Origin: Lanius collurio
Lineage: Eukaryota > Chordata > Aves > Passeriformes > Laniidae
NCBI GenBank assembly: GCA_020086605.1
Contig: JACBWW010000020.1
Span: 11,118,424-11,182,423 of the forward strand
Length of the DNA stretch: 64,000 nucleotides
Direction: 5' to 3'
The notes beneath the pieces are model-generated. The model was not told where the DNA came from and did no database searches. It saw only the letters and a list, made by a program, of their open reading frames with translations. This document shows, in pieces, positions 8,640-61,984 of this stretch. A program made the translations under genes and the position numbers. Every line of letters begins with the position of its first letter. Within the stretch, counting starts at the first letter, position 1.

Positions 8640-9378
8640 ATAACTTCAAGTGAGATATGCTAGAGAGCCCCTGAGGGAAGAAACTCTTCAGTTGCACTGG
8701 ATCTCATTCAAAGTGTTAAGAGTTGAAGACCTGCTTGAAACAGTGGCCACAATATATGTGGGAGAAACATTTGTCAGGGTCACAAAAGGAACCAAAAAAA
8801 GGAAGAAAAAATTTAAACATCATATCTGGTCATATATGGTCAGGGCTTTCAGGCCATGACTTAGAGCTAGAGACTGAGCCTGTTGGCCTTGACCGATGAG
8901 GAAAGGAGGTTAAGGTGTGTGAGCTGTTCACAGCTGTGCGAGGAGAAATTACAAACACAGCGCGGTTTCAAGCGGGGGCAATAGAACAGTCTGGGAGCTC
9001 AGGTTTTTTACTGGGGTGGTAGTCCAGCATATGACACAGGAGAGTGTAGAATCTGCATTTTTTGAGGTTTTTAAGACTCAGCTAGCCAAAGTCCCAGTGA
9101 CAAGATCTCATGTTGACGATTCTGTTAGAGGCTGGATGTTGGATCAAACAACTTCCAGAGATTTCTTCCAAGCAATGTTGCTGCAATTCTGTGGAGGAAA
9201 TCAAAACTGAAACAGATGAAAAAAAGCCAGGGATGGACAACTTAGCTGTAAATCAAAACAAAGGAGACCTCTCTCATTTTACTGACCTGAGAGTGCAGAT
9301 TGTCAGAGTTGCTCTGGGCTTGCCTTGGTTTCATCTGGTTTTATGTTACTTGGATTGGTGGCTAGTGGCCAAGTCATC
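8640..9378 (+). repeat. Composite repeat, copy 1 (CR1-like module inside)
   Basis: This segment has a second copy in inverted orientation at 21478-22060. Shared blocks in order are 'gacctgcttgaaacagtggccac', 'gtgggagaaac', a 'gttggccttga' block, 'atctcatgttgac', a 'ggctggatgttggatca' block, 'acttccagagatttct', 'gctgcaattct', and then about 180 bases ending near 'ttggattggtggct'. The part at about 9040-9190 resembles an old CR1 3' region ('gaggtttttaagactcagct' onward), but the homology continues past where CR1 should end. It is therefore either a composite repeat family or an old inverted duplication. About 160 bases (roughly 8945-9105) are present here and missing from the other copy. Frames at 8650-8859, 9016-9210 and 9110-9412 have no known domain. 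Confidence 0.7.
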
Positions 9379-11376
9379 AGTGAGGCCAGCATTTCCAGGA
9401 TTTTATCTATAATCCTCTAAGGTCTCTAGTCTATTTCTTTCAAATCCCCAAAAGGTGAGGGAGCAAAGCAAGTAACAGCAGTGTCTGTTCTGTATCTGTG
9501 CTGGGCGGTAGGCATTGATTTTCAGACAGGCTTTGTCTTTTTTACTGGCAGTTACAGAATGCTCAGTGGAGTATCACTATCATTAAAATGATTAACTTCT
9601 GTAAGATCCAACCGATTTATCTTTTATTTCTAATGAATTTCACTTTTTCTTGGCAATTTGACACAAGTCATTGTATCCCTTTGGCAGTGATTTTTGCTTA
9701 CTAGGTTAATCATTACAAAGGTAAGAAAAGCATTGTTACAATTACACTTGCTACTCCCTTTCTGACTTACAGAGGAATTTGTTTGTTCTCTGTTCACCCA
9801 CGGGTCAGTAGCTTTATATAGGAAACACAAAGTCTCAGTTCAAACTTATTATCTCACAAAATTGTTCATTTGAATGAACAGACAGTCTCAAAATGAGCTT
9901 AGCAGAAGCAGTTGGTGAAAAGCGACTGTGTAAGCCTGTCCATCTGGCTGGAAACACAAAGTAAACTTTGTAACAGAATTTATATCTGATTTACATCCAG
10001 ATGGGCTTCTCTTGTACCGGATTAGGTAATAACTAACAATTTTAAGTATATGCATAAACAAGTCTTAACCAGTGAGTTTAAAACTACTCAGCTTGTGTTG
10101 TTTCCTCCAAGTCTGCCACCTTCATTTCAAAGATAAAAGTATAGAGTACTTCAAGCATGAAATGAGTGAACTGACATCAAGAAATAAAATTTTCCATTCA
10201 ACTTCTGCTATGAATAATAAAGTGATTGAATTTCTTTTGATGTAAGTCACCAAATTGCAAGACTGAAAACCCTTACACAGTCATAGATGTACCATTCCTA
10301 CTATATCAAAAGACAGGATTGTCAGAAAAAGTGAGTAAAGTACACTGTGAAAGTTTATTGAACAACTTACTCAAATGCTGTTATGGTGCCCCAAAATCAA
10401 AGAACAAGTAGACATCTAGATCAACTTACGGATACAATCAGGAGTTTCAATCACTTCTGTCTGCTGTTGGAAGATGGTTCTCTCACCAAAATTTTTCTCA
10501 TCATTTAGCAATTCGAAAATGCATAGAAGAAGTTCTCTGAGTGTTTGATGATTTTCAATGTAGAAAGGATAAAATCTTGAGAAAGTGTATTGAGGTAGGC
10601 TCAAGTCGTGCATCTTTAGTGACAAGAAAATTGACACATTGCATTACCAACACTATTTGAAGCACAGACAATTAAAGAAAAAAAGTATGCAAGCTACTAT
10701 AAAGAAATCTATTATTTTCTATTTCTAAGAAATCTATTATTATCTATTAATAATCTATAGATTATTAATATGACAGAAAGAAAATGTTATATATGTGTGC
10801 AATACACTTTCAGGGATTTTTTTACTACGTGCATTTCTGTCAGCTAACATTCCATGTCACTAAATTCCAGTATTTATTGTAAACAAACTGAGAACCACAG
10901 GTCTTCAACTGATCTATTAATAAGAAGAAAAGCTAAATATAGCCTCAAGAAAAAACCCAAACAAAATACATGATTTCCCACAGTATCTTGCATAAAAGCA
11001 TTCTCAATAAATAGCAATATTGCAGTATTAATCTGCTCTTCTCACTTGTGTAGAGGTAATAGCAAAATTTTAATATGCCTTTCCAAATTAAAAAAAAAAA
11101 TAAAATTCTTCTATAAGGACAAAATACTTCAGTATTTATGGTAGTGCTTGAAACATTCTGAAAAATAACAAATCAAAACTGACATAGTTAATGCAAAGAA
11201 AAGAAGCCAAAGTGAGCTCTGCAATTTCTTTTTTGCTGACTTGTGCAGAAGCAAACATCACTCTATAAGGATGCATTATGACACAAAATAACAGGGAATG
11301 AGAAGGAGGAAGAGGGCAAATGAAGGGCTGAAATTCTTCCTGCAGCATTACCAAAAGATTTAAAGGCACTCACTGA
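9379..11376. other. No gene; one AT-rich palindrome
   Basis: Nothing coding is recognised. The frames at 9630-9830, 10416-10637 and 11136-11369 lack recognisable domains. The only structured item is the palindrome at 10745-10770, listed separately. Confidence 0.5.
10745..10770. repeat. 26-bp perfect palindrome
   Basis: A perfect inverted repeat of two 13-base arms with no spacer, centred on 'ctatag'. It lies beside a short direct repeat 'aagaaatctattatt' (about 10703 and 10728). In AT-rich DNA such palindromes can arise by slippage, so a biological role is not implied. Confidence 0.8.
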
Positions 11377-16149: not shown

Positions 16150-17690
16150 AGACTAATGAAATTGAAAAGCCACAAGTCTATGGGGCTGGATAACATGCAT
16201 ATATCCAAGGGTCCTGATGGAACTGGCTGATGCTGTTGCCAAACATCGTATTTGAAATGTCATGGCAGTAACACAATGTCCCCAGAGACTGGAAAAAGGA
16301 TAACATAACTCCTATTTTTAAAAGAGGGAGAAAGGCAGATCCTGGGTACTACAGATCAGCTAGCCTCACCTCTGTGCCTGCTAAGATCATGGAGTAGGTC
16401 CTCATGGAAACAATGTTAAAGCATATCCAAGACAAGGAGGTGATTCAAGATGGCCAGCACGGCCTTATCAAAAGACAACTGTGCCTCATCAGTCTGGTGC
16501 CTTCCATGACAGGGTGACTGCAATGTTTAACAAGAGAAGACCAGCCTAAAATTCTATGAGGCCTTTGACATGGTCCCATGTCCCACTCTTGTCTCCAGAT
16601 TGGAGAGATACGTTGGAAAGGTGGATTATTTGCTGGATTAGAACTTGACTGGATGGACACAGCCAGTGAGCTGTGGTCAATAGCTCTATATCTAGGTGGA
16701 GGCTGGTGACAAGGGGCATCGCCCCGGGCTCTGTCTTTGGGCTGGTGCTCTTTAATATCATTATCAACAGCACAGACAGCAAGAGTGAGTGAGCATTCAG
16801 CAGGTCTGCAGATGGCCCAAAGCTGAGTGGTGCAGTTCCCCTGGTAGAAAAGGATGCCATTCAGAGGGACCTGGACAAACTTGAGAAGTGGGCTCATGGG
16901 AACTTCATGAAGTCCAAGAAGTCCAAGTGTGACATGCTGCACCTGGTTCAGGGCAATCCCAGATATGAGCACAGGCTGGGCAAAGAGCTCATTGGTAGCA
17001 GCTCTGTGAAGCAGGATTTGAGAATTCTCATGCATGAAAAGCTGGACATGAGCAAACAGCAGGCCAGAAAGCATGCCAACTCACACCCCAGAAAGCCAAC
17101 TTCATCCTGAGATCCATGAAGAGATGAGTGGCCAGCAGGTTGAGAGCAGTGATTCTCCCCCTCTACTTGTGAGATTCTGCCTGGAGTATTTCACCCAGGT
17201 CTGGGTCTTCAGCATGAGAAAGATGTGGGCCTGTTGGAACAAGTCCAGAGGAGGACCACAAAGATGATCAGGGGGTTGAAGCACCTCTCCTATGGAGACA
17301 GGCTGAGGGAGTTGTAGTTGTTCAGCCTGGAGAAGAGAAGGCTCTGGGGACATCTTATAGACTTCTAGTATTTAAAGGGAGCTTGTAGAAAAGAGGGGGC
17401 ATGGATTTTTTTACACGGGCAGATAGTGATAAGACAAAAGGGTATGGTATTAAACTGTAAGAGGAAAAAATTAGATCAGAGCTCAGGGGAAAATTTTTTA
17501 CTCTAGGGGAGGTAAGGCACTAGAACAGGTTGCCCAGAGAAGTTGTGGATGGCCCATCCCTGGAAGTGTTCAAGTCCAGGTTGGATGGGGCTTTGAGGAA
17601 CCTGTTTTTGTGGGTGTTATCCTTCCCCTTGGTGGGAGACTTGGAACTAGATGATATCTAAGGGACCATCAAACCATTCTATGTTTCTAC
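16150..17690 (+). pseudogene. CR1 retrotransposon with decayed reverse transcriptase ORF2
   Basis: This is the longest CR1 in the window, about 1.54 kb, truncated at its 5' side inside the reverse transcriptase. Read in shifting frames, the DNA encodes typical CR1 RT blocks: a 'KSMGxDN' opening, 'PxDWKK'-like and 'KADPGYY'-like segments (about 16280-16360), an 'FDMV' block (about 16562), a 'GSVFGxVLFNI' block (about 16727-16760), a degenerate 'ADxPKL' segment where the catalytic YxDD/FADD region should lie (about 16800-16825), then the thumb and C-terminal region to about 17600. Frameshifts and in-frame stops interrupt it repeatedly, so no active enzyme can be made. The 3' end carries the usual 'gaactagatgatatctaaggg' and 'accattctatg' tail. 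The 209-residue minus-strand frame (16445-17074) is antisense to it. Confidence 0.93.
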
Positions 17691-17735: not shown

Positions 17736-17980
17736 TGTGGAGGTGGGTCCCTGTCCCTGTCCCCAGGTCACGTGTGCCCCATACCTGTTCCTGATTGGGT
17801 GGTGTGTGTGCCTGGAGCTGGGGCGGGAGAAGGACCAGGAAAGAGTCGGCTTGGGAACTCCGGCCATGCGGTTGGAGAAATAAAATCATCCCTGAACATC
17901 TACAAAAATACTGCTTCATCTGTCCTTCCAACTCCATCGCCTCATATATATTGTTGTAAGGGTTCCCCGCACTGCAACAG
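17736..17980 (+). mobile_element. Short solo LTR (family A), plus strand
   Basis: This matches, in inverted orientation, the 3' LTR at 37659-37914. Both have the same 'ggaggtg', 'ccaggtcac', 'tgccccat.cctgttcctga.tgggtggt' and 'aataaaat.atccctgaacatct' blocks, the same 'tgcttcatct.tccttc' segment and a 'ttgtaaggattcccc' type end. AATAAA lies at 17879-17884. It starts at a TG (17736) and closes near 'caaca(g)'. The pentamer TATTT lies just before (17731-17735) and just after (17981-17985), a possible target duplication if one extra G is allowed at the right end. No polypurine tract or internal sequence precedes it, which fits a solo LTR. Several small frames overlap it and mean nothing. Confidence 0.82.
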
Positions 17981-17985
17981 TATTT

Positions 17986-19855
17986 AGGCTCTATGTCACA
18001 AAAATACAGGTCTGGAATATTCTCCTTCTGCCTTTATTTGATTTTGTTTTTTGTTTTGTTTTAAGACATGTCTCCTTCTTTAAGAATGGAAAGAAGCAAA
18101 ACTGCCATCTCAGCAGGATTTTCTCCTTTGGTAAAATTGTTCAGCATGTATATATTAAAAAAAATTGTCTGCTTTTGCATGTCCATACATACATGTAAGA
18201 ACTTACAGGCACGCAGAAGCAGACTTTTTTTTTTCTTTTTTTTAATGGCAACTATAGCACAGGAAGTGAGTATCATGAAAGAATATGGAGAAAGAATCAT
18301 AATGGTTACATTTAAGGAACTAAGAGCTATACAAAATTGTACAAGGATGATATTAAAAGTTACAGATAACCAGTAAATATCAGCAGGAATCACTTGGATA
18401 TAGTACTATGTAAAGGGGTCCCACCATTTCAGGGAAAATCACATTTTGTAAAGGTCTTAATTTTCTAAATTTTTTCTATTCCTAGTCATCAAGCCCCTAA
18501 TTTGTTATCAATTGCTGTTCTTACAATTTCATTCCATTGTTGCAGTGAAATGTGATCTATGTATGTCAAATGAAAATCTGACAGCTGTAGATTAATCAGT
18601 AGACTGCTCTTCAGAATTTTTTGCAGCATTCTACATCAGTTCAAAAAAGTTTAACATGACATTTCAAAGCACTACACAACATACTACTAGCTTAATACTC
18701 ATTAAAAGTTTGCTGAAATACCTCAAAAATACAAGCACATTATAATTCAGACATTGTTTTGAATGGAAGTACTGCAATGTCTGCTTGTTTTTATTAGCTA
18801 CTAGCACAGCAAATGATGCTGTTATCAAGACTGATTACACTCCTTGCAGAGTTGATTCTGCTAAAAATATTTATTGATTAATAGAAAAGAGTTGGGACAA
18901 AATGGCAGTAAAAAAATAGATGAGGAAAAGCAATGAGTTGATTCAGAGTTTCATGTGTAAAAAGATAGAGGGAATATTTATTCATTTGTCAGAGATATTT
19001 TTTTTCTTAAAAACTTCTCTAAAATTACTTTCTTAAAGTCTGGGATTTCTAAAAGTAGAAATTTCCTGCAGCAATGAGTGGAACATGATATTCTGAATCT
19101 CATTTGCAGTGAGGATATGCCTTAGTCCTATGGACTCAGGGAAGATTTTATTTTAGATTTTATTGTAGCTTCATATTTGCAAAGAAGGTTAAGAAACTCT
19201 CAGGCTCATGACTTGCTGCTCTTCCATGTTGGAAGTAATAGATTCATATATTCTTAAATGGTCTTAGGAGTTCCATAAATATGCAAATGGAACATAAATT
19301 CTTCAAATTAAAAATAAATAAAATATTACTTGTGGCTAATGTTAAGGCTAAATACTAAGATACTGTGGAAAATAAAGAAACTACAAAACTCAGACATGAT
19401 GTTGTTTGACTTGCTCAAATTGCATTTTTTTTCCTCCTTTTGAGGAGAAAGCTATCATTAAGGATTGTAATTTTGCAGGATCAAATAAAATGTTAAGTAT
19501 CATAATTTCAGAATTTATTTTATTTCGGATGCTCTTGACATTACTCAGAACCACCAGACCAACTAAATACAATTATCTACGAAGGGAAACCTGAATTTTG
19601 ATACAGTTGTGGCTTTGTACTACAGAATTTTAGGATATGGATATATTACATCTGATCACTCTTATTAAAACAATGATGTTAATTCACCATTAGTGCTTTA
19701 AGTTCCACAGTGTAATTCTGAGGATCCCTAATATCCATAAACCCAATGAAATTAAGATTATAAAGACAGTTTCCAGAATGCTGTTGTTTGGATAAGTTTG
19801 TTATCATTTTGTCTTTCTAATGTTTGGAGTATTGTCTTCTCTTTTCCTACTATGC
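17986..19855. other. No gene (1.9 kb)
   Basis: AT-rich DNA with a T-rich patch at 18223-18243. Overlapping frames of about 100 residues on both strands at 18061-18393 have no recognisable domain and include a lysine run produced by that patch. No other structure was seen. Confidence 0.5.
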
Positions 19856-20935
19856 TGTATTGCATTTGCATGGACAGGTTTTGGTAGGAGGGCAGGCTAC
19901 AGGGGTGACTTTTGTAAGAAGCAGCCAGAAGCTTCTCCCACGTCTGTCAAAGCCAATTCCAGCTGGCTCCATGATGAACCTGGCCAAGAATGAGCCCATC
20001 AGCAGTGGTGGTATTGCCTCTTAAGGGTACAAACTGCCGCCCAACATCAACCAGAGAGCAGAGGAACATGTTAGAGGAACAGCTCTGCAGACACCAAAGT
20101 CAGTGGAGAAGGAGGGGAAGGAGGTGCTCCAGGCACTGGAGCCAAGGGGAAGATCACTGCACCCATGGAGAAGATCGTGCTGAGGCAGCTGTGCCCCTGC
20201 AGCCCATGGAGGACCAGAGTGAAGCAGACGTCCTTCTGCATGCTCTGAAGGACCCTGTACTGGAGACTGTGGAAGCCCAAAGGAAACAGTGACCTTGTGG
20301 AAAATCCTCACTGGAGCGGGGTCCTGGCAGGACCTGTGACCTCATGGAGAGAGGAGCAGATTTGCTGGCAGGACTTGGGACCCTGCAGGGAACCCATGCT
20401 GCAGCAGTCTGTTCCTGAAGGACTGCACCCTGTGGGTTGAATCCATGCCAGAGCAGTTTGCAAAGAACTGTCTCCTGGGGGAAGGGCTCACATTAGAGAA
20501 ATTCAAGGAGAACTTCCTCCTGCGAGAGCAAGCCCACGCTGGAGCAAGGGAAGAATGTGAGGCGGAAGCAGCAGAGACAGAGTGTGATGAAGTGACCACA
20601 ATCAGCAGTCCCTGCCCTTCTGGGCAACTTGGGGGGAAGAAGCTGAAAAATCAAGAGGGAAGTTGAGCTGGGGAAAAAAGGAAGTGGATGGGAGAAAACA
20701 TGTTTGAAGATTTTTTTCTCATTACCCTACTCTGATTTGATTGTAATAAATTAAATTAATTTCCCCAAGCTGAATCTATTTTATCTGTGACTGTAATTGA
20801 TGAGTGATCTCTCCCTGCCCAGGGATCTCAACCAATGACCCTTTTGTTATATTTTTAATCCTGCCCAGATAAGGAGGGCCGTGATAGAGCAGCTTTGGTG
20901 GGCACCTGATGTCCAGCCAGGGTCAACCCACCACA
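19856..20935 (+). mobile_element. Long solo LTR (family B), plus strand
   Basis: A 1.08-kb element starts 'tgtattgcatttgc' and ends 'gggtcaacccaccaca'. It matches, in inverted orientation, 36483-37462. Internally it carries several degenerate copies of a cassette of roughly 50 bases built around 'ccacgctggagcag' and 'gaaggactgcaccc'. AATAAA is at 20745-20750, followed by a U5-like stretch to the closing CA. The flanks TATGC (19851-19855) and TATAC (20936-20940) agree at four of five positions and may be a decayed target duplication. I recognise the pattern as a common avian LTR of ERV type but do not assign a family name. Frames inside (19824-20666) follow the cassette repeats and do not look like host genes. 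Confidence 0.85.
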
Positions 20936-21477
20936 TATACATAATTAAGCAATAAATTATCAAAATGAAGTTCAGTTAAAAATACTTCTAAAAATAAACA
21001 ATAACACACACCCCACCCCCCTTCCCCCAAACCCCCAGATATAAGAAAATACAGATTATGACAGACTTCATTGTCATTGGGCAGAATTAGGACTATGAAT
21101 ACTGTTGCCAGACCTGATTCTGATCCTGTCTTTCTGGCTTTTCATCCTGGCTCCTCACAAGCAAGGACAGTTCTCTGTACAGTTTTTGTGTGACTCCTCA
21201 CCTTCCCATGCAGAGCAGCCAGCCCTTGCTGCTTACTTCCAGTTACAGCAAATTGCCATCAGCACTCCCTCATTTGGCACTGAAGGAGGATGATGGTATT
21301 TATGCAGCAGGTTTCTTCATCCTTAGTCCTGGGCTCTACCTGAGACATTTTCATATGTTCTCCTCATGAATCTGCTTACTTCATCTCTCAGGCAGACTGA
21401 CATAAATGTTAGTAAAAGTTTTACTATGGATGGCATTTACAGAGCTTCAGCTGAAGCAGGTGAGGTCGTACCGATCA
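20936..21477. other. No gene; holds a C-rich tract
   Basis: A C-rich tract at 21011-21036 is listed separately. The rest, to 21477, has no recognised element. Small frames at 21105-21293 and 21366-21548 show no domain. Confidence 0.5.
21011..21036 (-). other. Candidate G-quadruplex motif
   Basis: The plus strand has four C runs (4, 6, 5 and 5 bases) separated by A, TT and AAA. The minus strand therefore has four G runs of at least four with loops of one to three bases, a textbook quadruplex pattern. It starts 76 bases to the right of the family B LTR. Confidence 0.75.
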
Positions 21478-22060
21478 CTTGGCAACCAGCCACCAATCCA
21501 AATAACATCAAACCAGCTGAAACTGAGGCAAGCACAGACCAACCCTGACAATCTGCACTCTCAGGTCAGGAAAATGAGAGAAGTCTACTTTTTGATTTTT
21601 ATTTACAGCTAAATTGTTAATTCATGGCTTCTTTTGTTTTAGTTTTGATTTCTTTCATAGAATTGCAGCAATATTTTTTGGGAGAAATCTCTGGAAGTTG
21701 TGTGATCCAACATCCAGCCCCTAATAGAATTGTCAACATGAGATTTTACATAGCTACAAACAGTGTACTCCTTAACCTCATCTCCTTCTGACTGATCAAG
21801 GCCAACAGGATCAATCTTTAGTTCTAAGTGATGGCCCAAAAGCCCCTGACCACTCAGACATGACTTTGACACTTTTTGTTCCTTTTTTTGTTTACTGTTT
21901 TTGGCACTGACAAGTGTTTCTCCCACATGCACTGTGGTCACTATTTCAAGCAGCTCTTGAGCTCTAACCCTTTTCATTGGAATGAATAAATCAGTGCTCC
22001 TGACCACCATGCAGTCCTCTATTGGACACTCTCAAGTGTCTTGAAATTCCTCTTCAAGTA
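21478..22060 (-). repeat. Composite repeat, copy 2 (inverted)
   Basis: The reverse complement of this segment aligns with 8640-9378 over most of its length, about 80% by eye. It lacks the roughly 160-base CR1-like stretch present there. A 123-residue minus-strand frame (21639-22010) spans it. Its C-terminal part, around 'GWMLD.TTSRDF', has the same reading in the frame at 9016-9210 of the other copy, but that DNA corresponds to a CR1-like 3' region, so I do not call it a gene. Confidence 0.7.
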
Positions 22061-22354
22061 GAGGCTCAAATCATTTCCAGGTGTGGCCTTTTCTGTGCAG
22101 TGCAGAAAATGGCAGTCACTTCCCTCTTTTGTTGGCTCCATGTCCTCTAATGTAGTTCAGTTCTGGGCTGTGGGGGCATTTTGATTAATTGGCAAGTGAG
22201 AATGCAGTTCTGGCTTATGGTCACTTGAGTCATTTTCATCAGGGCTATTATTTTCTATAATAGACTATAATAATATAACTAATATAACTATTTTCTCCCA
22301 AGTTTAAGGATATATGTAGTTATTTCACTCTACGTACACAAATTCTTAATTTAC
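22061..22354. other. No recognised feature
   Basis: Mixed-composition DNA. A few 'taatataac' iterations lie at 22270-22290. Confidence 0.45.
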
Positions 22355-22474
22355 CTTGTTAAACTGATGCAAATGGAAATAACAAATTTCTTGGTTTTAC
22401 ATGGATGTACTTGGGAGGGACATTGAATATCTATTTTTCATTCTGTTTTTTCATGTGAACATACCTCATGAAGA
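22355..22474 (+). repeat. Left arm of a young inverted repeat
   Basis: These 120 bases are almost the exact reverse complement of 23489-23609. I count two substitutions and one single-base indel. The arm runs from 'cttgttaaactgatgc' to 'cctcatgaaga'. Identity stops abruptly at both ends. No flanking duplication was found. Confidence 0.88.
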
Positions 22475-23488: not shown

Positions 23489-23609
23489 TCTTCATGAGGT
23501 ATGTTCACATGAAAAAAAAGAATGAAAAATAGATATTCAAAGTCCCTCCCAAGTACATCCATGTAAAACCAAGAAATTTGTTATTTCCATTTTGCATCAG
23601 TTTAACAAG
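23489..23609 (-). repeat. Right arm of a young inverted repeat
   Basis: This is the reverse complement of 22355-22474 with only three differences. If the pair were the ends of a transposon, the unit would be 1255 bp long with terminal inverted repeats of about 120 bases. Confidence 0.88.
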
Positions 23610-24224
23610 CAAAATGAAAAAATGCTTAATTAGATAAATGTATGAAAAAAAAAATCTGATGGGAAAATAAGATCTCCCTTCTGTTGCCTGGGTCACACAG
23701 TTTTTTCAGGATTGCCAGAGTAGATTTTTTACAAGACTAGTCTTCACTAGGATAGTACAGTTCTGTCTTTTCCAGTCTATTATTAGAAACCTGAAAGAAA
23801 AAGTGCCTCTAAATGTTATTTTCTAATAGAAAACCTAATGAACCTTAAAAAAAAGAATAAAGTAATAATGTAAAAAGCATCCAGTTTTTTTGAGAACAGA
23901 GGACAATTACAAAACCTGACTCATTAAAAATTTGCCTGAAGTAACTTCCTATCCTGCCTTGTCCTACAAGTTTATCAGGGGCTCTAGAGAAGTGTCCTAT
24001 TTGATTGATTTGGCATCATCGGTGCTGTAGAAGTGCCCAGAGGTGTAAACTGTGTTCATTAGATGCTTGCAAAGACTAATGTTCAGTAATACTTAAACAG
24101 ACTTTTACATGAATAAATGAAAAAAAAGAACTCATTTCTCAGGTCTCTCTGTACCAGAAAATGTAATTAATAAAATCCCATATTCTTGTATTTAAAGTAA
24201 TTGCTGCTTTTATTACTACAGTGC
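23610..24224. other. No recognised feature
   Basis: AT-rich DNA with several A runs (for example 23645-23653 and 24119-24127). No element was recognised. Confidence 0.5.
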
Positions 24225-32765: not shown

Positions 32766-34599
32766 TGAAGGGATTGGACATGATTTTTCTGTGAATGAGT
32801 GTATGAGTGAATGAGTAAGGGCAACATAGGGACTGCTGGGCCAACTGGAAAGGGGTGAAAGAGAGCAGAGAAAATCTCAGTCGTTTTGTCTCCAACAGTA
32901 TAACAGCATAATATTCTCTGAAATTCTTTGAAATTACATGTTTTACCAGAACTAATCTTTATGTTAAAAGTACTATATATCTTTATGTTAAAAGTTGTAT
33001 ATTTTAAAAATATACAAGAAAATGTATTCATGTATATTTGTAAAATATGTCCTTTTATCTTCGAGGAAGATTCTTTCTTGATGTCTAGAGTTATCTGAAA
33101 TACTTGTCCTATTCCACAGCACCATACTCTTATCTTTGAACAGCAGTGATGATAATGTTCTTGGTAATCTAACACCTTTTAATCTTCTTAATTAATTTCA
33201 GCTTTCTAGGTACTGGTGACCTGGAGTTTAGTTGGGTTTGTTATTTTTAATAGCATTAAAATATTTTTTTGAAAATGTTTGTTGTTTGTCATAATTCTCC
33301 GTCAAAACATGACAGAAACAAGAGAAAAATAATATCATCAGCATTTAGATTTATTCAGAGCATAAGCTTTTAAGTATTTTATTAGATATTCAGAACTAGT
33401 CAAAAGCACCACTGCAATTTAAATCATTCTATCTCTTTTAAAGACAGGTCCAAGCTTGGAGGTATGAATGGAGATCTGGAACTGCTGCTGACAGGTCTGT
33501 CAATCCATGTTCTCAAGGATAATTTCTGAAAAGAAACATTTTGTCACAAAATATTTTACTTCAAGTCTGTTATAAATGGACTGAGTAATAGAACTATTAA
33601 TAAGTATTTTAATATGGAAACTTTCTTGTTTGCATAATGATATAATTGTAAAGTAAATAGAGGCATCGCATATTTTTTGCAATGATTGAATAATCACAGT
33701 AAGGCTTTCAGAAAAAAGTAAATTATGCTTGCTATTTGTTCTGTGACTGTTGTTATCTGTTTGTTGTGATTGTGTTGCAAACTATATTTAGAAAGAGAAA
33801 ATAAGCATTGACTCTGACATAGATAGCTTTGCCATGACAAGCATGCAAAATGTTTTGTATCCTAAAATAATTGCATAAGCTTCAAAGTCATAAAAGTACT
33901 AAAATATTTTTTTGAAGATTTGGATATTTACAAATAGTACCTAAAACCTTACACAGGTTTTCTCAAATCGCTTGGTTTCAAGAATGAGACCTAAAGTAGA
34001 AGATATTCTGTGTGTATTTATTGTGGCATTTTTGCAAATATAGAATAGAGAACAGTTATTTAATTTTACAGAAATATGGGAATGAAGGAAGTAACCTGTT
34101 TGCACCACAAAACCCCCCGCTATTTAAAGAATTGATTTTCTAAAGCTTTTCCATGAAGAATAAAATGTTATTAATGTTTTATAAGGTCATTTGCAATGAA
34201 CATCATGCATACATAAACTGTGGGGAAATACAGGCTAGAATTTTTCTCATATTAAGGTTTATGAGTTTGACTCTACTTGAATTATAATGATTTATACGTG
34301 AAAAATAAAAGAATATTCCATTGAAGTCAATGGGAGATTTGGAATTGTATTTCCATGAGGTAGAATTTTATCCAGGCTCTGCTGTGTTAAATTAACCCCT
34401 AATTTTATTCCACCAATCAGAAAGAAGAATGGTCTCATACAACCTCAGCAATATGATGAACGGCTACATTTTATTCTGCAGTGATACTGCAATTCACCTC
34501 ACTGAGAGGGTGTGAACAATCATCCTAAAGCCTACTTACTTTTCCTCCTAAAACAGTACTGGAAGGGTCTCTTCCTTTAATGTGTTCTGGGACAAATGC
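32766..34599. other. No gene; one amniote-wide palindromic motif
   Basis: AT-rich DNA. A duplicated 'tctttatgttaaaagt' lies at about 32956-32990. 'ccattgaagtcaatgg' (34318-34333) is a near palindrome of the type seen in ancient amniote repeats. No coding frame was recognised. Confidence 0.5.
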
Positions 34600-35275
34600 T
34601 GGAAATAACATAGGTTCATGGGAAAATTCAAGATGGACAGGGCCTCAGGATTCCCAAAACACAGTCCTCTCTGAGGTCAGATTAGGCTGTTTAGGGCTTG
34701 GTCTGTCTAGGTCGCAAAAACCTTCAAGGACAAAGATTGCGCAGATCTTCAAGAAGCCTCTTCTAGCACCTGTTCTCATAGAGAAAAGTTTCTCTTTCTA
34801 CCTAGGTTCAATTTCTCTTGTTTCAATGTATGACTGTTATTTGCCATTTTCTCACCATGCACTAATGTAGAGACTCTCTCTCTGTCTTGGTAAGGTCTTA
34901 ATAACATTTTCCCTTGCTGGAGGGCTGCTGTTAGATCCTGCTGTTGTCTTTTCTCCAGGCTGAACAAGCCCAGCTTCAGTAGCTTCTCCTCAAAGAGCAG
35001 GTTCTCCAGTCCCTGACCAGCACGGTCACCTTCCACCAAATTCACCCATGTTTATAAATGTATTTTCTCTGTTTGGGCCCCCCAAAACTGGATGCAGGAA
35101 TCTAAATGTGGTCTTACAAGTGCTATGGAACTCGCCTTGATCTACTGCCTATATTCCTATTACTGCATCCTGGGTTGCTCTTGACCTTCCTTACTGCCAG
35201 GGTATTCTGCTGGCTCATACCCAGCTTGTAAACCACTTGCAATCCTTGTGGCTCATTCCTTTGGCCTAGTTAGGT
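34600..35275 (-). repeat. CR1 fragment, minus strand, 3' part
   Basis: About 675 bases match reverse-complement CR1 in order: 'ctctgaggtcagattaggctgtttagggct', 'aaaaccttcaagga', 'gagaaaagtttctctttctacctagg', 'tctccaggctgaacaagcccagctt', 'gcttctcctcaaagagcaggttctccag', 'ccccccaaaactggatgcagg', 'gtggtcttacaagtgct', and 'ctgctggctcatacccagcttg'. The last corresponds to the end of ORF2. No intact frame remains. The 96- and 89-residue frames at 34580-35045 are chance. Confidence 0.92.
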
Positions 35276-36482
35276 CCCTCTGGATGGCAGACTTGACCTC
35301 AAATATTTTGATGGGTCTGCCCTTCAATTTGTAGTCATATAGAAACTTGGCTGCAGAAGTTAATCTGCTTCCAATTATGTTTTTCCGAGTCCCTTGGCTG
35401 ATTTTGTGATAAAGTACATGATTTGTGAAATAGATTTGCATCCCCAGTAATTTGAATGAATAAACTGAGAAACTTCCTATTTTGAAAACAGGGTGAGAAG
35501 AGATACAGGCAACAACAATATGTCCAGTGACAATGTCATATGTTACACAAAGCAAAAAGAGTTTAGATGGAATATTAAAAAATATAAAACAAAATAACTT
35601 CCCCACCTTCCTCCACTACTATCAAATATGTTCATTTTTTATTTATCTTTAGACTGAGAAAACTAGAGAAAATTATGTTGCTCAGCTTGTCATTAATTTG
35701 GGGATTTTTTCAGATCTTAGATGACAAGCTTGGTTTGGAAGGGCAAACATTTTTCCTCATGCACATGCTCATTAGTAAAGACCTCTATTTTCTAGTAGAA
35801 TAAATTTACTTACCTTTTAGTGGGACCGTTCTTCAGTCTGTATTCTGAAACTTTTATTGACTAGTTGTGTAGTCATCTGTTGCTACAAAAGCAGACTTCT
35901 GCAGTGGCTGTAGCAAATGTAATATTGGATTGACTGCTTTTTGAAATAATGGATCCAGAAGCAATGGATGATTCCTTTTTGTGTTCATTTTAACTGCACT
36001 GCTATTATTATTTTAATGTTTCTAACAAATACTTGAGAACATAAAGTAATTTTAAAAAAAAAGAAAAATACCCCAGAGGGAAATGGGAGATAAATAGACC
36101 GACTACATTCCAATCAGTTTATTATCCATGTTAGGACTACAGAGCAACATCCATTTGCAAAGGTATACAAAGTATATAAACAGTCATATTTATATATAGT
36201 CACTATATATATAGTGGCCAAAACTCAGAACAAACAATAAACACTGTAGATTTTCAGTTTAGAATAACATACATTGACTAAATTTTCTCACAAAATCAAA
36301 CTAAATAACAAAGAATCAAGACAGCTCACTGCAATGATACATGCCTAGGAGTCCTTTCATTTCATAGCTGAAGACTTCAGCACATTTTAATCTCTCTCAG
36401 TGCCCAAGCCACTAAGTGAATCAGAATACCAAATACAGTTTCTCTTTGGCTTCAAGGTGTCTTTTTCTCATGCTGACACACC
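35276..36482. other. No gene; AT-rich palindromes
   Basis: A 117-residue minus-strand frame (35253-35606) has no domain I know. The AT-rich palindrome 'cactatatatatagtg' is at 36201-36216. No other structure was seen. Confidence 0.5.
36477..36482. repeat. Target site duplication, left copy (CACACC)
   Basis: CACACC precedes the family B LTR and recurs at 37463-37468, immediately after it. Confidence 0.72.
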
Positions 36483-37462
36483 TATAGTGGGTTGACCCTG
36501 GCTGGATACCAGACACCCACAAAATCACTCTCTTACTCCCCTCCGCTGCTGGACAGGAGAGAGAAATATAATGAAGGGTTCATGAGTTGAGATAAAGAAT
36601 GCTCACCAAATACTCTCATGGGAAAAACAGGCTCAAATTATAGATATTGATTGAACTTATTGCTAAAAAAATCAGAGCAAGATAATAAGAAGTAAAATAA
36701 AACCTTAAAACCGCCTTCACCCCAGCTCTCCATCCTCCTCAGCTCTACCTCCTCTCCCACAGCAGTGCAGACAGACAAGCAATGGGGGTTATGATCTGTT
36801 CATCAAAAGTTTTTGCCACTGTTCAGGAAGAGGAGTCCTTACCCTGCTCCAGCGTAGGGTCCCTCCCAAAAGAGACAGTTCTCCATGAACTTCTCCAGCA
36901 TGAGTTCTGTCCATGGGCAACAGTCCTCCCCAGACTGCTGCAGAGTGGGTTCCATGGCTTGAAGTCCTTCAAGGACAGGCTGCTCCAGCACGGGTTCTTC
37001 TCCCCCAGGGTCACAGCCTTCACTCAGGCTACAGTGTGAGTCTCCTCCACAGGCTGCAGGTGGATCTCAGACCTCCATGGGCTGCAGGGGTACAGCTGCC
37101 TCACTATGATCTGCACCACGGGCTGCAGGGGAATCTCAGTTCCAGTGCCTGGAGAGACTTCTGCCCCTCACTCCTGCACTGACCTTGGTGTCTGCAGAGT
37201 TGTTCTTCTCATGTGTTCTCACTCCGCTGTTCTCAGGCCACAACTATGTCTGCACGATGACTTTTTCTCTTTCTTAAATATGTTATCACAGAGGCATTGC
37301 CATCGTTCCTAATTGGCCCAGTTTGTCTGGCAGCACAGCCATCTTTGGAGCCTTCAGGGACTGGCTGTGCCACAAAGACATGGAGGAAACTTCCAGCAGC
37401 TCCTTACAAAAGCCACTCCTGTAGCCCTGACTATCAAAGCTTGGCTGTGCAAACCTGATACG
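36483..37462 (-). mobile_element. Long solo LTR (family B), minus strand
   Basis: A 980-bp element is the inverted counterpart of 19856-20935. In plus-strand view it starts 'tatagtgggttgaccctggctgga' (first bases TG changed to TA) and ends 'gcaaacctgatacg'. The cassette units 'ctgctccagcacggg', 'ggtcacagcc' and 'ggctgcaggtggatctc' recur. A TATA-like 'catatttaag' is on the minus strand at 37275-37284. The exact hexamer CACACC flanks both ends, which supports an independent insertion. The polyadenylation signal seen in the other copy is eroded here. Frames at 36782-37606 follow the LTR repeats and are not genes. Confidence 0.85.
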
Positions 37463-37468
37463 CACACC
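37463..37468. repeat. Target site duplication, right copy (CACACC)
   Basis: This is an exact repeat of 36477-36482. Confidence 0.72.
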
Positions 37469-37658
37469 ATGTATCTCATTTGTGTACTAAATCTCAATGT
37501 GGGAGACACACTGCCATCTTTAGAACACACAAAAAAAGTAATTCACCTCATATTTCATGTGGAAAATAACCAGTCACCAGATTGCTCTCCAAAGGGGAGT
37601 ACATAATATTCCATATAATTTATTATATACTATACATTATTTATGATATATACACTAC
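37469..37658. other. AT-rich spacer between two LTRs
   Basis: This short interval separates the family B LTR from the family A 3' LTR. It includes a TA-rich tract at 37607-37654. Confidence 0.5.
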
Positions 37659-37914
37659 TGTTGTAGTGAGGGGAATCCTTACAACATATATAAGGCAGTG
37701 ATGAATTTAGAAGGAAAGATGAAGCAATAATTCTTTAGATGTTCAGGGATTATTTTATTCCTTCAGACACATGGCTGGTGCTCCCAAGCAGCTCCCAGGC
37801 ACCCAAACCACCCAGTCAGGAACAGGAATGGGGCACGGGTGACCTGGGAGTAGGGACAGACCCGTACCCTGCAGGGTCCCTCCTCCCAGGATTTCAGGGG
37901 AAGGCACCTCCATA
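37659..37914 (-). mobile_element. 3' LTR (family A), minus strand
   Basis: On the minus strand it starts near 'tatggaggtg' and ends 'cactacaaca', matching 17736-17979 through most of its length. AATAAA on the minus strand is at 37754-37759. Unlike the copy at 17.7 kb, it is preceded on its own strand by a polypurine tract and internal sequence (37915-38060), so this is the 3' LTR of a truncated provirus. No target duplication was found. Confidence 0.82.
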
Positions 37915-51060: not shown

Positions 51061-51098
51061 TTACTTCCACACTTTAGCCTGACCAGGATGTCATTATT

Positions 51099-51335
51099 CA
51101 TAGAATCATAGAATATGCCGAGTTGGAAGGGATCCACCAGAATCATCACATTCAACTCTTGGCCCTGAACAGGACACCCCAAGAATCACACCATGTGCCT
51201 GAGAGCATTGTCCAAATGCTTCTTGAACTTGGATAGGTTCGGTTCTGTTACCACTTCCCTGTGAAACCTGTTCCAGTGCCCAGCCACCCTATGGGTGAAA
51301 ACTTTTCCTGGTATCTAACCTAAACCTTCCCTCTT
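51099..51335 (-). repeat. CR1 3' end nested in an older CR1
   Basis: It starts 'tcatagaatcatagaatatgccgagttggaaggga', the reverse-complement terminus of a younger CR1 type, and continues with 'caactcttggccctgaacaggacaccccaagaatc', 'tgtgcctgagagcattgtccaaatgcttcttgaac' and 'cctgttccagtgcccagccaccctatgggtgaa'. It is about 237 bases long, 5'-truncated, and inserted into the older element on either side. It is much closer to the CR1 pattern than its host, which agrees with a later insertion. Confidence 0.9.
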
Positions 51336-56016: not shown

Positions 56017-56490
56017 TGTGGTGGCTGGTTGGCCTGCGGTACAAGAGACAAAGAAAGTTCTTGGGTAAGACAGTCGCTGGTACCAGAGACTTATGTCATG
56101 GTCACGGTGAGCAAAGAAGCCTCTCCCAGAATGCTGGGTTCTGTTATGGTAATCTACCCCAGTTCTGCTTCCCTGGTTGGCTGTGGGCGCTCTTGCTACC
56201 TTATATGTTCCATATCCTAGAAAGTTCTCCACTCCAGGTTCCCCCATTGGCCTTTGACCCTTGCCACTCCCTGAGAGCTTCCCCATTGGTCCCAGTTCCC
56301 TGGTCCTGCCTTTCTACCTCCCCCACACTTAAACCTAGACCCTCCATTGTTCTTGGTCTTTGCCCCTGGGATCCTCCCCAGTGTGGAAGCAATAAATTGT
56401 GTGGAACTCCACACAAAGACCGTTTCAGCCTCTTTACTGCCAGCTGCTATCACTGAAACTATCCTTGTATTTGTGTGTGTGTGTATGCAG
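56017..56490 (+). mobile_element. LTR, plus strand
   Basis: It opens 'tgtggtggctggttgg' and is GC-richer than both flanks. In the U3 there are two inverted CCAAT boxes ('ccattggcc' at about 56243 and 'ccattggtcc' at about 56283). AATAAA is at 56391-56396, followed by a U5-like 'gaactccacacaaagaccg' segment. The right end is placed at the CA of 'gtatgca' (56490), but this is uncertain, since GC-rich sequence goes on to about 56600. No target duplication was seen. Overlapping frames of 103 to 179 residues on both strands (55975-56886) carry no domain that I recognise. Confidence 0.7.
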
Positions 56491-56512
56491 CTGATCCAGC
56501 TGATCCAGCTGA
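56491..56512 (+). repeat. Tandem GCTGATCCA repeat
   Basis: A 9-base unit (gctgatcca) is present twice plus a partial copy. It sits directly after a short (TG)n run at 56474-56485. Confidence 0.85.
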
Positions 56513-57829
56513 GTGGCTTCACTTTGGAGTCCCGTTTTAGAGATGGCAGCACCTTGCGCTCCAGCACAGAAGCTGCAGCGGTGAGATGGCGATATGCAAC
56601 AGCCTTCAAACTCAAAAAAATTATAGATGACTACTTAAATGAATATATGTTTTTCTGTACTTGGGCCATTCTACTCAGATTTGCAAGACTGAGTCCTAAA
56701 AAAACATTGTCCGTGAGGTGTCTCAGAACGGTTGATTCAATGATTAGTTGGCTTTACATCATCAGAGAAAGATGTCACATACTCTGCTGGGACACTGACA
56801 TCACTCTAAAATGCTCCAAGAACAGCCAAAGTTTAAAGAAAGGAGCTCTTTCTCTAGAAGATGGGAAAGATTTGGCAGCTGTGTAACTGTTAGGGACACT
56901 TTTCCCAAAGATTTATGCATTTTCAATGAAATGTCAGGATGCAGAGGGTCTGAAATAGTCTTCACACTGATGATGTGAGAGTGTGAGAATTCTGCTCTTG
57001 TAAACAAAATTATTTATACCATATTGCAAGAATCTATTAAAAACAAAACTGTAATTACCAATGTCATTGTGATTCAATGACAAAAGCTGAGCAACAAGAA
57101 ATCTAGCTTCTTTTATTGACCCAGGCAAATTCTTTAGTGACCTTGGACATTGAACTTAATTCCTCATGCTCTTGCTTTTATTTTCTCCCTTTGTTTATGT
57201 TGTGAGAACTAGCATCTCCTGCAATGACTTTAGGCAGGACCTAACACAGGAAATCTTGTAGATCATCTGCAGCATCTGAGGTATAGCCTTATGTAAAAAA
57301 AGAAGTGAAAAATTAATAAAGAATTTTGAATAGTATTTCTTTAAATATTTACTCCAGTTAAATGGTGTGATGCAAAAGGGTATAATACATAAAAAGTAAA
57401 AGAAAACAAAGGAAAAATTTCCAAAACCAAAATGTGCTGGGCCAATACCGAGAAGGTTGAAATTTCTATCAGTACACAACTGCTTTACTTGCCTTGAACT
57501 GGAAACATTTCTATTTTTGGTGAAATTTTTTAAGATTAGCAGTTTACATACTACTTCTCACTCCTGAGAAAACATATGTTTATTAATTCTAAACCAGCTA
57601 ATGTCTTTTTTCAGCACTTATGCATTTCTTCTATGAAGAGCTTTATGTATGAATATTCTCTCAAAGTCTTTTATTATTCTACACCACGAAGATTAAAATA
57701 TTTGATCTTCCAAGTTATTTGTAAAGAACATATGATTACAAAAATTATGAGTTAGTAATAGGCCAAAAAAGCATCCCATGGAAGTACAAGTTAGATTTTA
57801 AACAGACCCCATTTAAAGGCATAGGCCAA
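56513..57829. other. No recognised gene
   Basis: The first 100 bases are still GC-rich and may belong to the LTR. The long frame 56347-56886 (179 residues) begins in the LTR and runs into this area without a recognisable domain. The remainder is AT-rich. Confidence 0.45.
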
Positions 57830-60174: not shown

Positions 60175-60425
60175 TAGGGCAGGGAGTATCAGGACAAGAG
60201 TTTACAAAACAGAGTACCTTAGGCTGGATACTGGAAAAGGGTTCTTCACCCAGAGGGAACAGGCTCCCCAGAGGAGTGGTCACAGCACCGAGCGTGGCAG
60301 TTCAAGAGGTGTTTAGACAATACTTTCAGGCACATGGTGTGACTCTGAAGTGGTGCTGTGCAGGAGTGGCAGTTGTACTCGATGATCCCTGAGGGTCCCT
60401 TCCAACTCAATTTATTCTGTGATTA
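60175..60425 (+). repeat. CR1 3' end, right of the ERV insertion
   Basis: It begins near 'cagggagtatcagg' and continues with 'ccttaggctggatactggaaaagggttcttcacccagagg', 'gaacaggctccccagaggagtggtcacagcacc', 'gtgtttagacaatactttcaggcacatggtgtgactct', and the end 'gatgatccctgagggtcccttccaactcaatttattctgtgatt'. It follows on from 59285-59565 with a small overlap, so one CR1 was probably split by the ERV. The 87-residue frame at 60053-60316 is not a gene. Confidence 0.9.
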
Positions 60426-61654
60426 TATTAAAATAAATATGCTTGAAATCTGAAGTAATTTTTCAATTTCAAACTCAATTCTCAAATATTTCTATATGCA
60501 GAACTTCCCTTGAAGGCAATATGCTCTCATGTGTGAAATGGCCTGGATGATCATTGCAAGCATTGATATTGCTTGCAAAAACTATTGATATCAGTAGAAA
60601 GCTGTCCACTGACTTTGCTACAGTACTGTGGAAAATAAAATAACAAACTTGGATGTTTTTCATTAAGTACAAAATCATTTCAGGCAAGCAATCAAACTGC
60701 TTAAATACTTAAAGAAAGCAAACATTATTAATTAATTCCTGCCCTACCAAGACAGTTTCAGCTTATCTCACTGCACTACATTTTATCTTGAGAAGAGGTA
60801 CACTTTGGTCAAACATGGATTGAAATTATTTTGAAGAAAGAACAACACTTAATTCCCTAGCTGCACTCTCCTCATCATTTTCTATCTGCTTTGTTCATAT
60901 CAGGCTCTTTGCCTGTATCTGGGCAGATGAATATTACTTCTGCCTTTTTCTGTTCCCTGGATTTTGACTCATGTCCCCCACTTTTAGCTGTATGGGTATT
61001 AGATAACTAACCTATCATTCTAAACTTATTTAGTATGAAATTCCGTGGTTTGGAAGGAAGATTAGCCTGAATAAATAATTTTCTAGAAATGGCTATTACT
61101 TAGCTAGGAAATATTAATTTCTTCCTTCACTTGGACTAACTGCACAGCACCTTCATACACACATGCAGCTTTTCTCCATATACTCAGGTTAGCCCTTACC
61201 ATTCAATTATGTTGAGAAAGAAGAGGATTACAGGAAAGCAGAAACCATGATCTGACAACTTCTGTACTAATATCACCGAGTCTGAGAAAGTTTGATATGC
61301 ACAAAAGGGATGTGTAAGAGAAGTATCTAGTTGCAGCTAAGTACAGCATTTCCAACTCTGTCTTTACTGTGTACTGCACCAAAATAGAAGTGTAAAAGAA
61401 GCTCATAGGAGAATACTTCTGGAAATTACTATTGTGTTTAGAATACTGATTTTTATCAACAAAATCTTACCTTCTGTAAAATGATGAAGAACTTATGCTT
61501 CAAAAATAAATTTTGGAAAGGAAGAGAAAAGAAAGATAACATGAGAATTTTCATTCATCCTTAAATTACCTTTATAATTCAAGAAAGATGTAGGAAAACC
61601 CTGTCTTTCATTATGCAGATATAAATTATATTAAAATCAATAGAGTTGCTCTGG
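60426..61654. other. No recognised feature
   Basis: AT-rich DNA with no gene or named repeat. The 70- and 67-residue frames on the minus strand have no domain. Confidence 0.5.
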
Positions 61655-61984
61655 TATAAAAAGCAGAATTTATTTAAAATTCAACAGTTTTATTCCTTTC
61701 TGGAACATTAAATTCTAACACTTTGAAAACGGTGCATAATTTCATAGAAATGGAAAAATGCAAGCTAATATGTTTTTTAATGCTAGTAAATAATTATGCT
61801 TTTTAGGTAAAATTATCATTATTAGTAGAATTCATATCTTTTTGTTTCTATTTTGTATTGTTGTACTTGCATTTTTCCATTTCTATGAAATTATGCACCG
61901 TTTTCAAAGTGGTAGAATTCCAGAAGATTAATGTTCCAGAAAGGAAGAAAACCCTTGAATTTTAAATAAATTCTGCTTTTTATA
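61655..61984. repeat. Long near-perfect hairpin (inverted repeat with 101-base loop)
   Basis: Left arm 61655-61764 (110 bases) and right arm 61866-61984 (119 bases) are reverse complements. I count four mismatches and one 9-base insertion in the right arm, about 96% identity over aligned bases. The loop is 61765-61865. The outer ends are 'tataaaaagcag' and its complement 'ctgctttttata'. The ends TA...TA could be the TA target duplication of a Tc1/mariner-type miniature transposon, but that is an inference. Transcription through it would give a long double-stranded RNA hairpin. No coding frame is present. Confidence 0.93.

What the first reader, a model, noticed from the sequence alone, without database searches (positions are those of the whole stretch)
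61655..61984. Long nearly perfect hairpin in otherwise unremarkable DNA
Two arms of about 110 bases pair with about 96% identity around a 101-base loop. The arms differ by four substitutions and one 9-base insertion, so the structure is young or maintained. It could be a miniature inverted-repeat transposon with very long terminal repeats (the ends are TA-bounded), a foldback duplication, or, if transcribed, a hairpin RNA that could feed small-RNA pathways.
Basis: seen in the sequence. Interest (0 to 1): 0.75.

Follow-up and report, generated by a model that had tools for sequence, protein, structure and literature searches.

The report
Single-copy inverted duplication, likely neutral
A 110-base stretch of DNA appears to have been copied backwards next to itself at one place in this genome, probably by a replication error, leaving a long hairpin; it looks like an ordinary mutation rather than a transposon or a working RNA gene.

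Summary
Arms 61655-61764 and 61866-61984 pair around a 101-nt spacer: 106 of 110 gap-free columns match, plus a 9-nt indel, far beyond chance. The transposon reading is not supported: in a 1.097-Gb assembly the hairpin matches only itself, and the right arm at E<=10 only the two arms. TA ends are weak evidence, since symmetry makes one TA into two and TA is 7.6% of dinucleotides. No Rfam family matches.

I favour a one-off local inverted duplication by replication template switching or fold-back repair. It lies in AT-rich DNA (25% GC) rich in A/T tracts, the context reported for template switches in apes, where copied fragments reach 128 nt (PMC7954356, passages). Arm divergence suggests roughly 9 million years at a zebra finch rate, with wide error.

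A second, unrelated inverted pair lies at 22343-22474/23489-23621; 0 of 19 sampled 10-kb stretches held one, though all 19 are richer in GC than the window. No relative's genome was held, so which arm is the copy, and whether the hairpin is transcribed, remain untested.

The parts
61655..61764 (+). left arm of the inverted duplication (110 nt)
61765..61865 (.). spacer, 101 nt, no other match in the window or in the 190-kb sample at E<=1e-3; a weak resemblance to the outer arm end at 61787-61805 is not clearly above chance (33 to 71 of 1000 resamplings as good in four comparisons)
61866..61984 (-). right arm (119 nt), reverse complement of the left arm with 4 substitutions and 9 extra bases

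Best explanation
A single local inverted duplication. During replication or break repair a polymerase switched to the complementary or the nascent strand, copied about 110-120 bases backwards, and switched back, leaving a reverse-complement copy about 100 bases from its source. The arms then diverged by four substitutions and one 9-base indel over millions of years. No function is needed. Shown: the inverted arms, no second locus found in this assembly, the AT-rich and A/T-tract-rich context. Inferred: the template-switch step, the neutrality, the age. Unknown: which arm is the source.
For: The whole hairpin and the right arm find only this locus in the assembly. Both arms and the spacer match nothing at E<=1e-3 in 190 kb sampled from 19 contigs, while an interspersed repeat of the same window gave 4 matches in that sample. 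The 330 nt have 25% GC (lowest 1.7% of 330-nt stretches of the window) and 15 A/T tracts of 4 or more (top 2.2%); template-switch events in great apes are enriched in poly(dA:dT) and AT-rich surroundings, 65.0% lengthen the sequence, and copied fragments have median 12 and maximum 128 nt (PMC7954356, passages). Template switching is proposed to create hairpin stems in a single event (PMC8794818, passages). A second, unrelated pair in the window fits a general mutational process better than a specific element (inference).
Against: 110 nt is at the far tail of the ape size distribution, and in the RNA-gene study the largest template-switch-like pattern was 59 bp (PMC8794818). Microhomology at the return junction is 1 base in one reading and 2 in the other (my reading of the flanks printed), so the junctions neither prove nor exclude template switching. 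All five differences lie in a 34-nt stretch of the arm (P = 0.028 for five independent events, 0.079 for four), which simple independent decay does not predict. No relative was available to show the empty site. The positive control for the whole-genome search did not complete.
Confidence: 0.78

Rival explanations
1. A miniature inverted-repeat transposon of a TA-targeting (Tc1/mariner-like) family, with 110-nt terminal repeats.
For: Symmetrical structure of about 330 nt; both ends can be read as TA.
Against: One locus in 1.097 Gb for the whole hairpin, and no hit beyond the two arms for the right arm at E<=10 (the tool scores only the best candidates and skips very common words). An end TA is mirrored in the other arm automatically, and TA is 7.6% of dinucleotides. 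Known bird mariner MITEs (galluhop) are about 500-600 bp; Tc1/mariner TIRs are about 28 bp (PMC5556988, passages).
Confidence: 0.05
2. A young hairpin-RNA or microRNA-like locus: transcribed through both arms, cut by Dicer, silencing a target.
For: Very stable fold on both strands, -157 and -152 kcal/mol. Mammalian microRNA loci such as MIR633 show patterns consistent with birth by template switching (PMC8794818, passages).
Against: No Rfam match in the window at gathering score. The right arm has no second match in the assembly; Drosophila hpRNAs typically have complementarity to one or a few targets, ranging from a single siRNA to extended regions (PMC10317233, passages), so extended targets are not seen but single-siRNA targets are not excluded. 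The 101-nt loop and 110-bp stem are far from a usual vertebrate pre-miRNA (recalled). No expression data at hand.
Confidence: 0.07
3. Assembly or read artefact (fold-back chimeric read).
For: Inverted joins are a known sequencing artefact (recalled).
Against: The arms differ by four substitutions and a 9-base indel and are separated by 101 bases found nowhere else in the window, which a fresh chimera would not be expected to show.
Confidence: 0.03
4. An older inverted duplication whose arms are kept alike by repeated quasi-palindrome correction (template switching between arms), so that they look younger than they are.
For: Differences cluster mid-arm while 30 outer and 46 inner bases are identical. 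Homogenisation of imperfect inverted repeats by template switching is reported in yeast (PMC8604942, passages).
Against: Clustering is only marginal (P 0.03-0.08). The yeast screen covered spacers of at most 70 bp, with arms of 7 to 16 bp, and found the affected repeats to have shorter spacers.
Confidence: 0.07

Closest known systems
Short-range template-switch mutations (four-point model; Walker et al. 2021, PMC7954356, passages)
   Same: Creates a nearby reverse-complement copy, often a new inverted repeat, in AT-rich DNA with A/T tracts; sizes reported up to 128 nt.
Template-switch-born hairpins such as the one behind MIR633 (PMC8794818, passages)
   Same: A hairpin that may have been made in one event.
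   Different: No sign either way that this one is transcribed or processed; its stem is far longer (pre-miRNA size recalled).
Long inverted repeats (LIRs) as catalogued by Lirex (PMC5414712, passages)
   Same: Arms over 30 bp and over 85% identical, within a 2000-bp search window; 656 were listed in one human contig.
   Different: That count includes arms shorter than 40 bp; no rate for arms of about 110 nt was seen in the passages.
Galluhop mariner MITEs of birds (PMC5556988, passages)
   Same: Inverted ends, TA ends.
   Different: Multi-copy (5 to 10,158 copies per genome), short forms about 500-600 bp; here a single locus.

Membership tests
Local inverted duplication (template switch or fold-back) | Two near-identical inverted arms close together, made of otherwise unique DNA | tested here: met
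Local inverted duplication (template switch or fold-back) | Orthologous site in relatives has one arm only | not testable with these tools
   no relatives held for this genome; one exact 30-base pattern scan of viral contigs found 0
Local inverted duplication (template switch or fold-back) | Microhomology at switch points | tested here: inconclusive
   1 or 2 bases at the return junction depending on which arm is taken as the insert (flanks printed)
MITE (TA-targeting) | Several to many copies in the genome | tested here: not met
   whole-genome positive control not answered
MITE (TA-targeting) | Target-site duplication TA | tested here: inconclusive
   TA at both ends, but implied by symmetry; TA is 7.6% of dinucleotides
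MITE (TA-targeting) | Ends shared with an autonomous transposon | tested here: inconclusive
   right arm matches nothing else at E<=10, but the sensitivity of the first look for short shared ends is unknown
hpRNA / miRNA locus | Stable stem-loop | tested here: met
hpRNA / miRNA locus | Known RNA family | tested here: not met
   0 Rfam matches at gathering score in the window
hpRNA / miRNA locus | Small RNAs from the arms | not testable with these tools
   no read data
hpRNA / miRNA locus | Complementarity to a target elsewhere (hpRNA) | tested here: inconclusive
   no second match for the right arm at E<=10, so no extended target seen; matches of single-siRNA length could be missed

The most novel reading that the evidence does not exclude
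The hairpin is a very young, lineage-specific hairpin RNA locus, born by template switching and now transcribed and diced, in a bird-like genome (species not named).
Probability: 0.04. Interest if true: 0.55.

Novelty: new member of a known kind. Interest (0 to 1): 0.15.

Why it matters
On its own, little: it is probably one mutation of a known type, though long for it. It would be a clean case for dating and polarising a 110-nt inverted duplication once relatives are aligned, and with the second pair in the same window it could help estimate how often such duplications of over 100 nt fix in this lineage. If it were expressed it would be a chance to see a hairpin RNA gene at birth.

Tried and rejected
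MITE family: rejected on copy number. Known RNA family: none at gathering score. Third, decayed copy of the arm end in the spacer (61787-61805): in four comparisons 33, 37, 69 and 71 of 1000 first-order resamplings of the spacer scored as well, so not claimed. Relation between this hairpin and the second inverted pair: none at E<=1e-3. Exact 30-base arm pattern in viral contigs: 0. Gene context: 10 of the 13 open frames of 120 aa or more were searched and gave no Pfam match at E<=0.001; the other three (16445-17080 minus, 35253-35615 minus, 56217-56630 minus) were not submitted, and the 21 frames of 55 aa or more overlapping 58-64 kb were listed but not searched, so whether the hairpin lies in an intron is unknown. 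A wider survey of inverted repeats in the genome was planned but could not be fetched.

Limits: the genome search scores only the best candidates and skips very common words, so a highly diverged or low-complexity relative could be missed.

Full report
What is there. The two arms are at 61655-61764 and 61866-61984, with 101 nt between them. Aligned, they share 106 of 110 gap-free columns; differences are at 61685, 61686, 61692 and 61718, and the right arm has nine extra bases next to 61710. The match ends abruptly: the 20 bases printed beyond each end show no further pairing. As RNA the 330 nt fold at -157.3 kcal/mol, z = -20.4, 0 of 100 shuffles as good. Arm-to-arm score is 160 bits against a best of 44.6 bits in 20 Markov resamplings of the whole window.

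Is it a repeat family? The window lies at G000:C20:11118424-11182423 of a 1,096,898,245-base assembly of 2132 contigs. The full 330 nt find only themselves, in both orientations, at E<=0.001. The right arm alone, at E<=10, finds only the two arms. The left arm alone and the spacer did not complete or not asked of the whole genome (for the spacer), though both are part of the query. In 190 kb sampled from 19 contigs (850 of the bases read N) neither arm nor the spacer has a match at E<=1e-3, while an interspersed repeat from the same window (60299-60431) has four. The same kind of control for the whole-genome search was asked for and not answered. The MITE reading therefore fails its main test, with that caveat. 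The TA ends are weak support: any inverted repeat whose arm ends in TA shows TA at both ends, and TA makes up 7.6% of dinucleotides in the window.

How it probably arose. A unique stretch with a nearby reverse-complement copy is what a replication template switch or fold-back repair leaves. In great apes such events have copied fragments of median 12 and maximum 128 nt, 65.0% lengthen the sequence, and they sit in AT-rich DNA with poly(dA:dT) tracts (PMC7954356, passages). In a study of RNA genes the largest such pattern was 59 bp (PMC8794818, passages), so 110 nt is long for the class. Here the 330 nt have 24.8% GC, lowest 1.7% of all 330-nt stretches in the window, and 15 A/T tracts of four or more, top 2.2%; as the arm sequence is counted twice, this context is suggestive only. 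Microhomology at the return junction is 1 base if the left arm is the insert and 2 if the right is (my reading), which decides nothing.

Age. Four substitutions in 110 sites give a Jukes-Cantor distance of 0.037. With the zebra finch pedigree rate of 2.0e-9 per site per year (PMC12047795, passages) and both arms evolving, that is about 9 million years; a Poisson interval on four events spans roughly 2.5 to 25 (my arithmetic). The species is not known to be a finch, so this is only a scale. All five differences fall within 34 nt of mid-arm (P = 0.028 taken as five events, 0.079 as four), leaving room for some arm-to-arm correction, as reported for much shorter inverted repeats in yeast (PMC8604942, passages); in that case the age is a minimum.

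Function. Nothing requires one. No Rfam family matches in the 64 kb at gathering score. Drosophila hairpin RNAs typically have complementarity to one or a few targets, from a single siRNA up to extended regions (PMC10317233, passages); here the right arm has no second match in the assembly, which speaks against an extended target but not against a short one. Mammalian microRNA loci show patterns consistent with birth by template switching (PMC8794818, passages), so an expressed hairpin is not excluded; no read data were at hand.

How unusual. The window holds a second close pair, 22343-22474 / 23489-23621, 95% identical over 133 columns with a 1014-nt spacer, unrelated in sequence. With one detection rule (55 bits or more, spacer under 3 kb) the window gave three rows (the hairpin, this pair, and a 50-nt palindrome at 32999-33048), and 0 of 19 sampled 10-kb stretches gave one (loci L001-L003, which hold the hairpin itself, were scanned there too and are left out of this count). 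All 19 stretches are richer in GC (0.361-0.450) than the window (0.358), and the sample is small, so the window cannot be called a hot spot.

Literature. Searches touching birds or chicken with inverted repeats, template switching or hairpin RNA (4 of 4 papers listed, 15 of 382, 10 of 20, 10 of 104) listed no title on this locus or on long inverted duplications in birds. I saw listings with the start of each abstract, plus passages of the papers cited, and the outline with abstract of PMC7954356; no paper was read whole. That is a statement about those listings in an open-licence library, not about the field.

Noticed in passing
22343-22474 and 23489-23621: A second close inverted pair, 95% over 133 columns (inner core of about 120 nt with 2 substitutions and one 1-base indel), spacer 1014 nt, unrelated to the hairpin. 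Its whole-genome copy number could not be tested because the search tool did not complete.
   Followed up: partly
9102-9381 and 21470-21747; 8710-8918 and 21767-21973: Two blocks of 84% and 77% identical DNA in opposite orientation about 12 kb apart, perhaps two copies of one interspersed element.
   Followed up: no
17751-20931 and 36487-37859: Four inverted matches of 67-78% in mirrored order between these stretches, perhaps two copies of an old interspersed element in opposite orientation.
   Followed up: no
51097-51274 and 60256-60431: Repeat in opposite orientations, 72%; the parts 51097-51229 and 60299-60431 had 3 and 4 matches in 190 kb of sampled genome.
   Followed up: partly
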